Virus record (IMG/VR): IMGVR_UViG_3300034072_001149
Coordinates: 1-64,000 of that record
Direction: 5' to 3' (one strand)
Origin: a virus
DNA length: 64,000 bases
Both the position numbers and the translations under genes were made by a program. This document shows positions 5,320 through 16,515 of the stretch, piece by piece. How positions within the stretch are numbered: position 1 is the first letter of the stretch; each line of letters starts with the position of its first letter. The notes beneath the pieces are model-generated. The model was not told the origin of the DNA and did no database searches. It was given only the letters and a program-made list of their open reading frames with translations.

Positions 5320-6159
5320 TTATAGTCGGTTGCCAGGGATCTGCTCAGGTAGCGCAGTCATCAGACCGTTAGCCTGTGTTGCGTTGTCGAAACGAACAGT
5401 CAGCGTGATTGTCTGGAAACCGGATTCTGCATAATCCAGATCCATGTAATCAACGTTCTCTAGGAAGCAACCTTCAAGAGTCCATGTTTCAACCACAGTG
5501 TCGTTGCCGCCATCCATGGTTTCAATAATGGTCACAAACTTGTAGTTAATACCCGAAGCAAACGCAGTCTGTTCAAAGTGGTTCAGCTGCTTCTGAACCT
5601 GATGACCTACTAGCTTTGCCACGTTGTTGGTCAAGTCATCCTTTAGTGTAATCTGGATGCTGTCCCACTTGTGCTTACCAGCATAGTAGGCGGTTGAGTT
5701 GTAGCTGTGGACTTCGATTGGATCATGATTGATCTTTGGCTTGGTAACTGTGGCAACCTGCTGGGTGAAATCAAGACCACCAGCGATTGGACCAAAGTTG
5801 ACCACGCGAACGCGGAAGCGATACTTGTACTTGAGCTGGAGAAGACCGCCACGGCCTGCCCCGCCACCGAGTGGAACCATTAACATTCAGCCAGTGTCGT
5901 TAATACTGACCCGCCTTACGGCTGCTCATTGTTACCAATGAGATTAGACTATATCATGACCCACTTAGGGGCCCCACCCGTTTCAGCCCACTTGGGCCTA
6001 CGACCTTTCGGTCTAGTCGTTGAACGTTCCGGTTCATAACACCGGCTTCGCTGCTGATTGTCCCTGAGGGATTTCCCAGCAATTAGAGTGGTTTTTCGAC
6101 TAGGATTACTCCTAGAAGCAGCTATTCCATTAACCGAACTTGCTTAGAGTTTCTGCCAT
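5320..6159 (-). CDS. 19: Tail tube protein gp19, gene interrupted by a group I intron
   Basis: The ORF 5320-5886 encodes the body of a gp19-type tube protein (LKYKYRFRVRVVNFGP, PKINHDPIEVHSYNS, then the C-terminal SGFQTITLTVRFDN). It lacks a good start: the ATGs at 5886 and 5880 have no ribosome site. The true start is ATG at 6159, preceded by an unusually perfect AGGAGGTGAT. It encodes MAETLSKFG and then hits TAA. Joining 6159-6133 to 5883-5320 removes a 249 nt group I intron and gives a continuous 196-residue protein. The exact splice sites are inferred (exon ending in U, intron ending in G). A late-type promoter precedes it. gp19 forms the inner DNA conduit of the contractile tail. Confidence 0.85.
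5884..6132 (-). ncRNA. Group I self-splicing intron in gene 19
   Basis: On the minus strand the conserved group I elements occur in order: P (AATTGCTGGGAAA), Q (AATCAGCAGCGAAGC), R (GTTCAACGACTAGAC) and S (ATGATATAGTC). The R and S elements can form P7 (GACTA with TAGTC). A four-pair P1 is possible between exon CGGT and intron GCTG, with U:G at the 5' splice site. The intron contains no endonuclease ORF. About 249 nt, interrupting codon 9/10 of the tube gene and introducing an immediate stop in the unspliced message. A GIY-YIG nuclease gene lies outside it, 98 nt upstream of exon 1 on the other strand. Confidence 0.9.
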
Positions 6160-6177
6160 GATTTTATCACCTCCTAG

Positions 6178-6208
6178 GTAACGATCTATTTTGATTATTT
6201 ATCGTTAC
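6178..6208 (-). promoter_or_regulatory. Late-type promoter inside an inverted repeat, gene 19
   Basis: Minus strand CGATAAATAATC (6193-6204) lies inside a perfect 8-bp inverted repeat GTAACGAT...ATCGTTAC spanning 6178-6208. The promoter core sits at the 5' side of the loop. The strong Shine-Dalgarno of gene 19 follows immediately. Confidence 0.55.
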
Positions 6209-6256
6209 AGGTTGTAAATAGATGTGAGTAGAAACTTTTAGAAGATTTGGGGTCCA

Positions 6257-7057
6257 ATGTTTTATGTCTATGTTTTGTGTGATCCAAGAAGAGCTGATAA
6301 ACCCTTCTATGTTGGCAAGGGATCGCGAGACAGATGTAGGTATCATTTGAATGAGACCTACCAAAATACAAGCAATCGGCGCAAATGGTGTAAAATCGCA
6401 GCCATCAAAAAATCTGGTCTCGAAGTTACCATTAAAAAGATCAAAGAAGATTTATCAGAGACTGATGCCTATGAATTGGAAGAACTTCTAATCAAAAAAT
6501 ATGGCCGTATTGGATATGACCCAGGTGGCATACTAACTAATATCTGCGAATCTTCGCGCCCACCCTCTGCCAAAGGCAGGATTATATCAGAGAACACTCG
6601 TAAGAAGCATAGCGAGCGACAACTGGGGCCTTTGAATCATCGTTACGGAGTTAAGATGTCAGAGGAGGATAAAGAACACAGACGTCAATTCAATCTAAAA
6701 CATGGCATTAGACCGCCGGACCGAACCGGTATTCCTCACAAGGAAGAAACAAAAGCCAAGATGAGTTTAGCCAGCAAGGGAAGAAAAAAGAGTCCAGAAC
6801 ATTGTAAAGCTATTGGAGACGCACGACGAGGTAAGCCTCTAGGGCCTTGCCCTTCCGAACGAGCCAAAAAGATTGCTGAAGCTCAATATCGTCACTATGA
6901 ATTGACTAGTCCAGAAGGAAAAGTGTATCAAGTCAATACAGGACGTCTAAAGGAAATGATCAAGACGTTTGGCTGGTCATATGGCTCACTTATGGCTGCT
7001 AAGAAAGCTGGTAGAAATTACCAAGGTTGGAGTATTATAGATTTAGGTAGAGTCTAG
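6257..7057 (+). CDS. Free-standing GIY-YIG homing endonuclease with NUMOD3 repeats
   Basis: 266 aa. N-terminal GIY-YIG nuclease domain (residues 1-~95): FYVYVLCDP corresponds to the GIY strand, FYVGKG to the YIG strand, followed by the arginine helix (RDRCRYHLNE) and the glutamate position in YELEELLIKKYG. Then a DNA-binding part with NUMOD3-like motifs (SENTRKKHSERQLG, KEETKAKMSLASKGRKKSPE). The end (TSPEGKVYQVNTGRLKEMIKTFG) resembles a NUMOD1-type helix. It is encoded opposite to all flanking genes and lies 98 nt beyond the start of the intron-bearing gene 19. It is a candidate partner that mobilises that intron. Confidence 0.9.
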   Translation: MFYVYVLCDPRRADKPFYVGKGSRDRCRYHLNETYQNTSNRRKWCKIAAIKKSGLEVTIKKIKEDLSETDAYELEELLIKKYGRIGYDPGGILTNICESSRPPSAKGRIISENTRKKHSERQLGPLNHRYGVKMSEEDKEHRRQFNLKHGIRPPDRTGIPHKEETKAKMSLASKGRKKSPEHCKAIGDARRGKPLGPCPSERAKKIAEAQYRHYELTSPEGKVYQVNTGRLKEMIKTFGWSYGSLMAAKKAGRNYQGWSIIDLGRV

Positions 7058-7058
7058 A

Positions 7059-7970
7059 TCAGAACTCTTCTACAGCTAAGATTTCAGCCTTTGTAGTCAA
7101 ATACTCCCACAATGGGTCATCTGTTGGTTCCCCTGACCAGTATTTTTCGGCAGCTTGTTTGATACGAGTATCATCGTAATCCAAGCCGTCATCTACCATA
7201 GACGCGATCCTGCTAGACCAGTTCATGTCATGCTTGGATACAGAGCCAAGAGCTTTGAGTGTAAAAACATATTCAGTTGAACCGCCGGCTGAATCTAAGT
7301 CATCTTCATTACCGACCATGAATACTGCGTCTCTATGTGAAAGCTTGTTGGCAGGTCTATAGCGTTCTAGAACTTCAAAGAACGGAACATAGCCCCAGTC
7401 ACGATCGTAATCGCTTCCACGACCGGTTAGAATCGTTCCTACGTCTAACTCATTGGCGCTGGAGTGATAGAAAATATTTGATGACTCGGTCAACTCAGTA
7501 TTTTCATTGTCAGTCTGTTTCCCTTTAAAAAAGCGAAGAAAGACCCCAACTGATATATTCCAATCAGTATCATTGCCTATCAAGGTATCCAATTTGACTT
7601 CAGAGCTTGGATACCTCAGCAATAATGGATCGTCATCATCATATTCATCAAAAATCCAATCGGCAATATGATTTGTATCTATCGATCCATCACCGTCATA
7701 TATTTTTCCATCAATCGAAACAGCACAATGATATATTCTTGGCTCTGAGGCGATCAAATCAGTGATCGCCACATCTTCCATATCCTCAAAATCATTCTGA
7801 CAGAATATCAGAATATAACATGGTTGATTGATGTATTCCGCCAAGGCCAAGGCAAAGGTTCCGCAATTTCCTCCATAAAGAGAATCCTGTCCAAAATAAT
7901 CAGATGCTTTCTTGATTAAATTGAGAACATTTTTCTTTCCAGAAGATTCTATGATTTCTGACCATCTCAT
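7059..7970 (-). CDS. Two-domain protein: Cys-His hydrolase-like N-terminus, possible ADP-ribosyltransferase-like C-terminus
   Basis: 303 aa. N-terminal half: GGNCGTFALALAEYI (Cys36) followed by IYHCAVSIDGKIYDGDG (His81, Asp92), a Cys-His-Asp order as in papain-like or transglutaminase-like phage proteins. C-terminal half (from ~residue 165): IFYHSSANELDVGTILTGRG, then RPANKLSHRDAVFMVGNEDD and STEYVFTLKALGSVSKHDMNW. That strand order (YH-S-x-x-L-x-x-G, R-x-D-A-V-F, D-x-x-G-G-x-x-x-Y) looks like ADP-ribosyltransferase-like proteins seen in phages, but the catalytic Glu cannot be fixed. The gene starts 4 nt after a TAAATA late motif, so it may be leaderless. The tail half of the call is inference. 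Confidence 0.45.
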   Translation of the reverse strand: MRWSEIIESSGKKNVLNLIKKASDYFGQDSLYGGNCGTFALALAEYINQPCYILIFCQNDFEDMEDVAITDLIASEPRIYHCAVSIDGKIYDGDGSIDTNHIADWIFDEYDDDDPLLLRYPSSEVKLDTLIGNDTDWNISVGVFLRFFKGKQTDNENTELTESSNIFYHSSANELDVGTILTGRGSDYDRDWGYVPFFEVLERYRPANKLSHRDAVFMVGNEDDLDSAGGSTEYVFTLKALGSVSKHDMNWSSRIASMVDDGLDYDDTRIKQAAEKYWSGEPTDDPLWEYLTTKAEILAVEEF

Positions 7971-7972
7971 GA

Positions 7973-7983
7973 CCTATTTAGTC
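7973..7983 (-). promoter_or_regulatory. Late-type promoter (GACTAAATAGG) abutting a start codon
   Basis: Minus-strand GACTAAATAGG ends 2 nt before the ATG at 7970 and is flanked by the inverted repeat CATGAC/GTCATG. If used, the transcript would have almost no leader. Confidence 0.45.
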
Positions 7984-8026
7984 ATGGAAATGGTCCCAGT
8001 TAATACTGGGGCCATTTTCTTTATGC

Positions 8027-9760
8027 TTACTTGCTGAAGAAGTCCGACATGATCTGCGGAGCCGCAGTGTCGAAACCAACCACATCCAACATACCAGCAT
8101 CCTTGGGGTCCGCAATGGTAAAGTTGGTAGCAGTCATACCTACCACAACAGACTTAGCAGCGATGCTAGTCTTCTGTCGGTAAGTCTTCAGAGCCTGAGA
8201 AGGGGCCTGACGACCAGCGTAGGTCTCGTTGTCCGTGTAGACAGCGAAGTTCTCCACTGGCAGCTTGTTATCAAGCGCCCACTCAAAGGGTAGCGAGCAG
8301 TCCGTGTTACCAAACGGCAAGTTCGAGACCGTGTTGATCACATCATCCAGTCGCTGACGCGGACTGATCTTCAGGATCGAAACCGGGCCTGCCTTCGTGA
8401 CGTTGGGATTCATACGACCACCGGACCAACCATAGCCCGACGACCCACCGGTAAAGCCAATGAACTCATAAGAGTTCTCAACATTAGCAGTGATCAGCGC
8501 CATAGCCGCCGAAGCGTCACGAGCCGTCAGACCCGGAATATTGCCAATAGCCGCAGCACCCATGGACCCCGACACGTCAAGAGCTAGCAGCGTATTCTTG
8601 CCGGTCGGGGCCACGTTACCAAACGAAGCGTAAAACGCCTGGTCCAGCGAGTCCACGACGCCGCGAACGACGTTCCAGGACAGGTTACCCTTGAAGCCAC
8701 GACCCTGACCATAGGTCTTCATCGCAGCAAGGATTGCGATCGGGTGAACACGAGCCTTGCGGAGAGTATCACCGTCAGAAAGCTTGGCCTTGACCAACTT
8801 CTCGGCAGCAGACATCGGCGTCAGAAGTCCAACGTTCGACATCTTGCCCAGGTTGCGGATCATGGCAGTCAGCGGCATATTGGTCAGCAGAGCCTCCCAA
8901 ACCTGCGCATCATTGAGGAACTGAGTGGGAATCGCCTCACGGGGAAGGTCGTGATCCACAATCAGCTGGATGATCTCCTTGGCAGAAGTTGCCTTCTTTG
9001 CTGCCTCGAATGCTAGGATCTGAGGATGTAGATGCGAAGAGGCATCCTGGCGAGTCAGACGAACCTCTCCCTCAAGAACTGCAGAACCACGAACATAATC
9101 CTTGGCACCAACGTTCTCAAGACCACCGACCATCCAGCGCAGAACTGCGTCACGCGCAACATCGTCCGTCTTGGGGTGACCAAGACGAAGCATGTCACGA
9201 TGCGACCATCCATCGCGCTGCTGATACTTGATTGCCTGGTTGGCCAGACGGTCCAGCGGCATCTCAAGATACCAATTACCTACCGCACGACGCAGAGCTC
9301 GACCCCAGCCACGGACGCCATCCACGAAGGCAGCGAAGTGGAACAGATGGGTGCCGATACGAGCAACCTTGGGCAAAGCAGCCAGCGCCGCCTTACGAGT
9401 TGCCTCACTATCAGCAGCCGATGCCAGTGCCAGCACAAAAAGCGCAGGATCGTTCTTGGGAGCGCGACCAGCGTCGCTGATTTCAACAACGCGATTAACA
9501 ACGCGAATACCATCCTCGGCGATCAGACGCAAAACGTTCTGAGCATTGGCCTTGGTTAGCTCGCGCTCACCTACATAATAGGTTCCACCCTCGGTTCCTA
9601 GAATCAGGAACCGATCAAGCTGATCCCAAGGGGAAACCACGAAGGTAAACCCGCCTGCGCTGTTCTTGGCCATTTCGGCCTCACGACCCGGAATGGGCTG
9701 GGTCTGTGGAGTCTGCTTGGACGTGATAGCACCCATCAGGGCGTTCTTGGAATTGCTCAT
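8027..9760 (-). CDS. rsr: Ro60/Rsr-type RNA-binding protein (TROVE + vWA)
   Basis: 577 aa from ATG 9760, chosen because AAGGAGT lies 8 nt upstream; an in-frame extension to 9871 lacks a ribosome site and crosses the hairpin leader. The N-terminal ~370 residues are the helical-repeat TROVE module (for example GTHLFHFAAFVDGVRGWGRA, GWSHRDMLRLGHPK, PMTAMIRNLGKMSNVG-like helices). The C-terminal third is a von Willebrand A domain with a MIDAS motif DVSGSMG at residues 395-401 and TDNETYAG later. Ro60 orthologues form a ring that binds misfolded RNAs and Y RNAs, and in bacteria tether nucleases such as PNPase. Bacterial rsr genes usually have Y RNA genes next door, which makes the structured RNA region at 10285-11135 notable. 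Base composition is GC-richer than the flanks, suggesting acquisition. Confidence 0.92.
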   Translation of the reverse strand: MSNSKNALMGAITSKQTPQTQPIPGREAEMAKNSAGGFTFVVSPWDQLDRFLILGTEGGTYYVGERELTKANAQNVLRLIAEDGIRVVNRVVEISDAGRAPKNDPALFVLALASAADSEATRKAALAALPKVARIGTHLFHFAAFVDGVRGWGRALRRAVGNWYLEMPLDRLANQAIKYQQRDGWSHRDMLRLGHPKTDDVARDAVLRWMVGGLENVGAKDYVRGSAVLEGEVRLTRQDASSHLHPQILAFEAAKKATSAKEIIQLIVDHDLPREAIPTQFLNDAQVWEALLTNMPLTAMIRNLGKMSNVGLLTPMSAAEKLVKAKLSDGDTLRKARVHPIAILAAMKTYGQGRGFKGNLSWNVVRGVVDSLDQAFYASFGNVAPTGKNTLLALDVSGSMGAAAIGNIPGLTARDASAAMALITANVENSYEFIGFTGGSSGYGWSGGRMNPNVTKAGPVSILKISPRQRLDDVINTVSNLPFGNTDCSLPFEWALDNKLPVENFAVYTDNETYAGRQAPSQALKTYRQKTSIAAKSVVVGMTATNFTIADPKDAGMLDVVGFDTAAPQIMSDFFSK

Positions 9761-9780
9761 GATCTTTACTCCTTTTTTCG

Positions 9781-9929
9781 GCTCGTGAAACCCACGAGCA
9801 AGGTTGGCCCTGAAAACAAGGCCGGTAGTTCGATCTAAGTAGTGGTGACGACCACTCAGCTCACAGCTCACGCTGTGATTGAGAAACGGACGGTTTTCTC
9901 TAGGTCTACAAAGCGGACGGGCTTTGTAG
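9781..9929 (-). promoter_or_regulatory. Hairpin-rich 5' leader of the rsr gene
   Basis: On the minus strand six consecutive hairpins occupy the leader: 9929-9906 (9 bp, loop CCGTCC), 9900-9881 (6 bp, loop ACCGTCCG), 9878-9861 (7 bp, GTGA tetraloop), 9856-9841 (6 bp, loop CGTC), 9823-9806 (4+ bp) and 9799-9781 (7 bp, loop GGTTT). The last ends 10 nt before the Shine-Dalgarno. Loops with GTCC recur and could pair with GGAC loops in the upstream RNA region. This suggests RNA-mediated or Ro-mediated autoregulation, unproven. Confidence 0.55.
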
Positions 9930-15879: not shown

Positions 15880-16515
15880 ATGTCAAACACTTTCTACGTC
15901 TATCTTTTGCTTGATCCTAGAAGGGACTACCTTCCCTTTTATGTTGGTAAGGGAAAGGGTGATAGAGCCAATCACCACCTAAAATACGAAAGTCACGCAA
16001 AGACCAATACCTTTAAGAAGTCAGTCATTCAGAAGATTAGACGCGATGGTAAAGAACCAAAGGTGATGATCTGGTCTGATGCGTTGTCTGAGACTCAAGC
16101 CTTTGATATGGAGAAAAGTCTCATAGAACGGTTTGGTAGAAGGGATCTTAAGACTGGCATACTTACCAACCTGTCGGATGGAGGATATGGCAATGCAGGG
16201 AGAAAATTCACCGAAGAGCATAGGCGGAAACTTTCTGAAGCCGCTAAAGGCAGAAAGCATACTGACGAAGCCAAAGCTAAGATGAGCAAGAAACGTAAAG
16301 GTGTTCTAGCTTCAGAAAAGACTAAACAGAAGCTGTCCGAGGTGAAAAAGGGACGGGGAACTGGCCCAGCCAACCCAATGTATGGACGTTGCGGAAAACT
16401 ACACCCTAACTATGGAAAAGAAGGTCTTACTGGCGAGAAGAATGGAATGTTCGGTCGTAAACATTCCCCAGAGACTATCGAAAAGATTCGACAGAAAGCT
16501 CTAGCCAGGAAATAA
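15880..16515 (+). CDS. GIY-YIG homing endonuclease with NUMOD3 repeats
   Basis: 211 aa. TFYVYLLLDPRR (GIY strand) and PFYVGKGKGDRANHH (YIG strand with following Arg/His) form the GIY-YIG core; the glutamate lies in FDMEKSLIERFG. After residue ~105 come NUMOD3-type DNA-binding repeats (TEEHRRKLSEAAKGRKH, TDEAKAKMSKKRKG, GEKNGMFGRKHSPET). It resembles the nuclease at 6257-7057 over the catalytic domain, so the two are probably related copies. It is encoded against the flanking minus-strand genes and separates an early-type promoter from the Pth2 gene. Confidence 0.9.
   Translation: MSNTFYVYLLLDPRRDYLPFYVGKGKGDRANHHLKYESHAKTNTFKKSVIQKIRRDGKEPKVMIWSDALSETQAFDMEKSLIERFGRRDLKTGILTNLSDGGYGNAGRKFTEEHRRKLSEAAKGRKHTDEAKAKMSKKRKGVLASEKTKQKLSEVKKGRGTGPANPMYGRCGKLHPNYGKEGLTGEKNGMFGRKHSPETIEKIRQKALARK

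What the first reader, a model, noticed from the sequence alone, without database searches (positions are those of the whole stretch)
5884..6132. Group I intron in the tail-tube gene, only nine codons after the start
P, Q, R and S elements occur in order and the gp19 ORF lacks a proper start unless exon 1 (6159-6133, behind a perfect Shine-Dalgarno) is joined. Phage group I introns mostly sit in DNA metabolism genes; one in a major tail structural gene, this close to the start codon, is unusual. It places an immediate stop in unspliced mRNA, so splicing is essential for virion production.
Basis: partly seen in the sequence, partly recalled or inferred. Interest (0 to 1): 0.75.

Follow-up and report, generated by a model that had tools for sequence, protein, structure and literature searches.

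The report
Mobile intron–endonuclease cassette in tail-tube gene
A self-splicing intron really does interrupt this giant phage's tail-tube gene nine codons in, and comparisons with related phages show that it travels as one recently mobile block with a neighbouring stand-alone DNA-cutting gene, a known but rarely seen partnership.

Summary
The intron is real. Rfam finds one group I intron (89.1 bits, E 2e-21), and its helices covary strongly. P10 pairing agrees.

Structural-gene introns have precedents (Twort tail tube; cluster J mycobacteriophage capsid and tail), so the host gene is not the surprise. The larger finding is next door. The intron has no ORF. A free-standing GIY-YIG homing endonuclease gene starts 97 bp upstream of gp19, divergently. 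Three results link the two. (1) Against a diverged phage, a 2,139-bp block (ORF303, endonuclease gene, exon 1, intron, 23 bp of exon 2) is 100% identical, while gp19 exon 2 has dS about 1.1. (2) Two phages 99.6% identical from exon 2 onward differ by presence or absence of intron and endonuclease. (3) A third, distant phage has a different group I intron at the same codon boundary, again beside such a gene. By gp19 cluster, 4/4 intron-bearing and 4/39 intron-less have the endonuclease gene.

Best reading: collaborative homing. It is a new member of a known kind. Splicing and cleavage are untested.

The parts
6133..6159 (-). gp19 exon 1, 9 codons, MAETLSKFG
   Evidence: ATG behind AGGAGGTGA; conserved contiguous with exon 2 in intron-less homologues
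5878..6132 (-). ORF-less group I intron, 255 nt, inserted in phase 0 between GGT and GTT (KFG|VP)
   Evidence: Rfam RF00028 89.1 bits; insertion site fixed by intron-less homologues; covariation
5320..5877 (-). gp19 exon 2 (tail tube protein) with stop codon
   Evidence: PHROG 4542 tail tube E 7e-58; 73% identity to Phosso tail tube over 194 aa of the spliced product
6119..6136 (-). P1: exon CGGU|UA paired with UAGCUG, U.G wobble at the 5' splice site
5873..5877 (-). 3' exon half of P10 (GUUCC), pairs with GGAAU at 6128-6124
   Evidence: L181 has guide GGGA with its exon GUCCC
5947..6018 (-). P7 (6018-6014 with 5951-5947), crossing P3 (6091-6086 with 5979-5974): catalytic core; P7.1 and P7.2 hairpins between
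6167..6175 (-). Shine-Dalgarno AGGAGGTGA of gp19
   Evidence: sequence
6195..6202 (-). T4-type late-promoter-like ATAAATAA upstream of gp19
   Evidence: TAAATA upstream of gp19 in 71 of 71 loci, 7.5% of random 105-nt stretches
6257..7057 (+). free-standing GIY-YIG/NUMOD3 homing endonuclease gene (266 aa), divergent from gp19
   Evidence: Pfam PF22945 and PF07460 above cut-off; PHROG 314 homing endonuclease E 3e-21; pN 0.12 vs pS 0.83 against L004
7059..7970 (-). ORF303, passenger gene of unknown function inside the transferred block
   Evidence: 100% identical in L006, 64.6% nt in L004 at the same place
5855..7993 (.). 2,139-bp block 100% identical to IMGVR_UViG_3300016675_000147, flanks 57-89% per 100 columns apart from a short near-identical stretch on the left

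Best explanation
[quoted passage not shown] subgroup IA-like) that self-splices from the late gp19 mRNA and joins MAETLSKFG to VPLGG. It does not move alone. A free-standing GIY-YIG endonuclease gene beside it most likely cuts intron-less gp19 alleles at or near the KFG|VP boundary. Repair from the donor copies endonuclease gene, intervening sequence, exon 1 and intron together; the intron then splits the target and protects the donor. This is collaborative homing. Shown here by sequence: the intron, its exact borders, the endonuclease gene, horizontal transfer of the block, and presence/absence polymorphism. Inferred: splicing activity, cleavage of gp19, and protection by the intron.
For: Intron identity and fold. 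Exact borders from intron-less alleles; second-generation search. The window and L006 share 2,139 identical bp covering ORF303, HEG, exon 1, intron and 23 bp of exon 2, while exon 2 has pS 0.586, dS about 1.14 and the gene after it 69% nt identity. L004 and L005 are 99.6% identical over 4,555 bp starting at the first base of exon 2, yet L005 has no intron and no HEG and differs at 6 of 27 exon-1 bases. A 261-nt intron at the same codon boundary with an adjacent divergent GIY-YIG gene occurs in L181, whose gp19 is only 65% identical. HEG identity is highest between intron-bearing phages (53% over 205 aa; 30-49% to the other gp19-side HEGs compared). 4/4 intron-bearing gp19 clusters have the HEG against 4/39 intron-less (Fisher p 6e-4, clusters not fully independent). 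The HEG is under purifying selection and keeps invariant Y18, G20, R26, H30, E75, N95.
Against: No splicing or cleavage data exist. Four intron-less phages (L011, L020, L105/L204, L234) also carry a GIY-YIG gene beside gp19, so the intron is not the only way to live with it. The HEG trees do not show that intron-associated HEGs are one clade. Transfer of a 2-kb block can occur by ordinary recombination. The intron-bearing sample is small: the window and three other contigs.
Confidence: 0.8

Rival explanations
1. The intron is an immobile (or reverse-splicing) passenger and the endonuclease gene only uses the gp19 flank as an independent landing site; the two are neighbours by coincidence and travel together only by linkage.
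For: GIY-YIG genes of several lineages sit beside intron-less gp19, so the flank is a hot spot by itself; a remnant lies there in Atu_ph07.
Against: Every intron-bearing lineage has the gene (4/4 against 4/39). In both comparisons the right-hand boundary falls within 23 bp of the intron/exon 2 junction, which is where a cut at the insertion site would put it.
Confidence: 0.15
2. The intron once carried its own endonuclease; that gene was lost and a new free-standing one was acquired (HEG turnover, the alternative raised for ICP1 in PMC10448857).
For: Many phage group I introns carry such ORFs; the ORF-less state may be secondary. The HEGs beside gp19 are diverse.
Against: No endonuclease remnant is visible in the 255-nt or 261-nt introns, and free-standing HEGs beside gp19 without any intron exist.
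Confidence: 0.2
3. No splicing: gp19 starts at ATG 5886 or 5880 and the upstream part is a degenerate relic.
For: In-frame ATGs exist at 5886 and 5880.
Against: No Shine-Dalgarno precedes them, whereas exon 1 has a perfect one. Exon 1 and the KFG|VP junction are conserved in nearly all homologues. The ribozyme core is intact and two-sided changes preserve its helices.
Confidence: 0.02
4. The identical 2.1-kb block is a metagenome assembly chimera.
For: The L006 contig is short (9,728 bp) and both sequences are metagenomic.
Against: A chimera would need two joins on either side of a block missing from one phage. Both flanks of L006 have the same nearest relatives at similar distances. L004/L005 and L181 support mobility without L006.
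Confidence: 0.05

Closest known systems
Collaborative homing of cyanophage S-PM2: F-CphI beside the intron-containing psbA gene (PMC6083498; Zeng et al. 2009)
   Same: Group I intron in a conserved gene with a free-standing endonuclease gene next to it; intron site as presumed target.
   Different: Here the gene is the tail tube, the nuclease is GIY-YIG/NUMOD3, divergently oriented; cleavage is not shown.
ICP1 terminase intron with adjacent T5orf172 (GIY-YIG subfamily) HEG (PMC10448857)
   Same: GIY-YIG-type gene beside the N-terminal exon, outside the intron; spliced phage gene.
   Different: Different gene and phage; there splicing was shown by RNA-seq and RT-PCR, here not.
Twort orf142 (tail tube) group I introns (PMC11878797)
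   Same: Group I intron in a tail tube gene.
   Different: Phage of another family; gene known for exon skipping. Homology of the insertion sites was not tested.
Cluster J mycobacteriophage capsid and tail gene introns (PMC3706429)
   Same: Group I introns in late virion genes, a 265-bp tail-gene insertion among them.
   Different: Different phages and tail gene; the capsid intron carries its own putative endonuclease ORF.
Phage RNR, terminase and RNA polymerase introns (phiNIT1, SPR, RudolfGeigy, 201phi2-1)
   Same: Same ribozyme family: 70-76% DNA identity over most of the intron and the same helices.
   Different: They sit in nucleotide metabolism, packaging or transcription genes.

Membership tests
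Group I catalytic intron (Rfam RF00028) | Covariance-model match above the gathering score over the whole model | tested here: met
   89.1 bits vs 50, model 1-253 of 253
Group I catalytic intron (Rfam RF00028) | P3-P9 core with crossing P3/P7, supported by covariation | tested here: met
   P3 6/6 pairs with two-sided changes, P7 invariant and paired in all, 94.2% of cells paired
Group I catalytic intron (Rfam RF00028) | U.G pair at the 5' splice site, terminal G, P10 with the 3' exon | tested here: met
   P1 U.G at 6133, last base G at 5878, P10 GGAAU/GUUCC; L181 IGS GGGA vs exon GUCCC
Group I catalytic intron (Rfam RF00028) | Self-splicing in vitro or spliced mRNA in vivo | not testable with these tools
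   No RNA data
GIY-YIG homing endonuclease | GIY-YIG domain with catalytic Y/Y/R/E/N positions and NUMOD region | tested here: met
   PF22945 37.3 bits, PF07460 26 bits; PHROG 314; conserved residues
Collaborative homing pair | ORF-less intron with a free-standing HEG gene beside the same gene | tested here: met
   HEG 6257-7057, gp19 ATG at 6159, intron from 6132
Collaborative homing pair | Intron and HEG gained together | tested here: met
   2,139-bp identical block; presence/absence in L004 vs L005
Collaborative homing pair | HEG cuts the intron-less allele at the insertion site and not the intron-containing one | not testable with these tools
   Only indirect: right transfer edges within 23 bp of the site

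The most novel reading that the evidence does not exclude
The pair is a competition weapon among co-infecting giant phages. The endonuclease cuts the essential tail-tube gene of intron-less relatives and blocks their virion assembly, the intron makes the carrier immune, and this keeps the cassette jumping among lineages, with a different intron recruited to the same codon boundary in a distant phage.
Probability: 0.3. Interest if true: 0.7.

Novelty: new member of a known kind. Interest (0 to 1): 0.5.

Why it matters
Collaborative homing rests on a handful of cases, in T7-like phages, a cyanophage psbA gene and the ICP1 terminase gene (PMC10448857). Here the tail-tube locus of a widespread giant-phage group shows several states side by side: no element, endonuclease only, endonuclease remnant, and endonuclease plus intron (two diverged introns at one site). 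It also gives a natural transfer with mapped edges. That makes the order of events (endonuclease first or intron first) and the protective role of the intron directly testable. For annotation, gp19 of such phages must be called as a spliced gene; the mechanical ORF call starts at an in-frame ATG inside the intron.

Tried and rejected
Translation start at 5880/5886: rejected. Intron-associated HEGs as one clade: not supported by the trees (short domain, poor support; the gp19-side label needs 3 changes). A broad pattern search for more introns at this site found only the three contigs already known; an intron-core pattern also found introns in other genes (L075-L077). Bonocora and Shub 2009 (PMC2856452) is not held. 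L235 could not be resolved by motif and has no Rfam hit. One script ran into the time limit after printing the tree; its counting part was redone.

Full report
What was checked. The window is part of a 159,200-base virus record. Its proteins resemble those of the giant phages Sinorhizobium phage Phosso and Agrobacterium phage Atu_ph07. A scan of the whole window against Rfam gives one match only: RF00028, group I intron, 5925-6142 on the minus strand, 89.1 bits, E 2e-21, covering the full model. No other intron was found in the record.

Exact borders. Exon 1 is ATG GCA GAA ACT CTA AGC AAG TTC GGT (6159-6133), behind AGGAGGTGA; the next codon is TAA. Of 71 gp19 homologues fetched from IMG/VR, 69 read KFG directly followed by VP. 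The two exceptions, L004 and L006, have a group I intron at that point. A further search brought the set to 151 loci including the window. After a relaxed motif, the only additional interrupted locus is L181; L235 stayed unresolved but has no Rfam match. The intron is therefore 6132..5878, 255 nt, and the protein joins as MAETLSKFG|VPLGG. P1 (CGGU|UA with UAGCUG, U.G at the splice site) and P10 (GGAAU with exon GUUCC) agree with this border.

Structure. Ten related phage introns were aligned. The drawn structure, including the P3/P7 crossing and P7.1/P7.2 hairpins, pairs in 94.2% of cells against 75.0% in shuffles and 36-47% when slid. There are 128 two-sided changes against 39.7 in shuffles. 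P7.1 and P7.2 point to subgroup IA (from general knowledge, not tested). BLAST relatives sit in ribonucleotide reductase, terminase and RNA polymerase genes.

The neighbour. The intron has no ORF. On the opposite strand, 97 bp from the gp19 start codon, is a 266-aa GIY-YIG/NUMOD3 gene. Against its L004 homologue it shows pN 0.12 and pS 0.83, so it is kept functional. Between the two genes lies ATAAATAA, a T4-type late promoter motif; TAAATA is found upstream of gp19 in 71 of 71 testable loci and in 7.5% of random stretches.

Evidence of joint mobility. First, window against L006 (IMGVR_UViG_3300016675_000147): 2,139 identical bases, window 7993-5855, covering ORF303, endonuclease gene, exon 1, intron and 23 bases of exon 2. 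Near-identity continues about 150 bases further left, into the 3' end of the Ro60-like gene, and beyond that identity drops to 57-89% per 100 columns. gp19 exon 2 of the same two phages has dS about 1.14. Both flanks of L006 have the same set of nearest relatives, which argues against a chimera. Second, L004 against L005: 99.6% identity over 4,555 bases beginning with the first base of exon 2, but L005 lacks intron and endonuclease gene and differs in 6 of 27 bases of exon 1. Third, L181, a 543-kb contig whose gp19 exon 2 is 65% identical, has a 261-nt group I intron at the same codon boundary and a divergent GIY-YIG gene next to it, 53% identical to the window's over 205 aa. Its guide sequence (GGGA) matches its own exon 2 (GUCCC), as the window's (GGAA) matches GUUCC.

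Association. Clustered at 92% gp19 identity, 4 of 4 intron-bearing clusters have the endonuclease gene, and 4 of 39 intron-less clusters do (Fisher p 6e-4; clusters are related, so this is a guide and not a strict probability; L004 shares its cluster with intron-less L005). Intron-less phages with the gene are L011, L020, L105/L204 and L234, and Atu_ph07 keeps an 82-aa remnant. The trees of the endonuclease domain are poorly resolved and do not show a single gp19-specific clade.

Mechanism. These facts fit collaborative homing as defined for cyanophage psbA (PMC6083498) and reviewed in PMC3984707 and PMC2988022: a free-standing endonuclease cuts the intron-less gene, repair brings in endonuclease gene and intron, and the intron protects the carrier. 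The closest arrangement is ICP1's terminase intron with a T5orf172 (GIY-YIG subfamily) gene beside the first exon (PMC10448857). Splicing, cleavage and protection are inferred here.

Novelty. Introns in virion genes are known: Twort orf142, a tail tube gene (PMC11878797), and capsid and tail genes of cluster J mycobacteriophages (PMC3706429). The finding is a new member of a known kind. Its value lies in the side-by-side states of one locus and the mapped natural transfer.

Noticed in passing
window 8027-9871 (-): A Ro60/TROVE RNA-binding protein gene (PF25045, PF05731) lies between tail sheath and tail tube genes and is kept there in many relatives.
   Followed up: no
window 7059-7970 (-): ORF303, unknown function, travels inside the identical block; only a weak PHROG 5663 match.
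   Followed up: partly
window 15892-16248 (+): A second GIY-YIG homing-endonuclease-like gene; a third lies at 122037-122387 of the parent record.
   Followed up: no
L234:400-485: Match to the suhB/mmgR small RNA family (42.8 bits, cut-off 41), usually a bacterial host RNA, in a 608-kb phage contig.
   Followed up: no
L077:5037-5236 and 5866-6098; L075:7759-7971: Group I introns in what look like capsid genes of environmental phages, two of them close together in L077.
   Followed up: partly
L165 (record of L019): Group I intron (82.9 bits) near what reads as a family B DNA polymerase gene in another giant-phage contig.
   Followed up: partly
L163/L166 (Atu_ph07 112959-113220): Sub-threshold group I intron match (48.9 bits, cut-off 50) in a stretch of hypothetical genes of a published phage; not annotated.
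   Followed up: no
L004:618-1511 (-): A 297-aa ORF further upstream in L004 (CDYGCGR...) resembles a 236-aa ORF in L012 near gp19; possibly another homing-nuclease family at the same hot spot.
   Followed up: no
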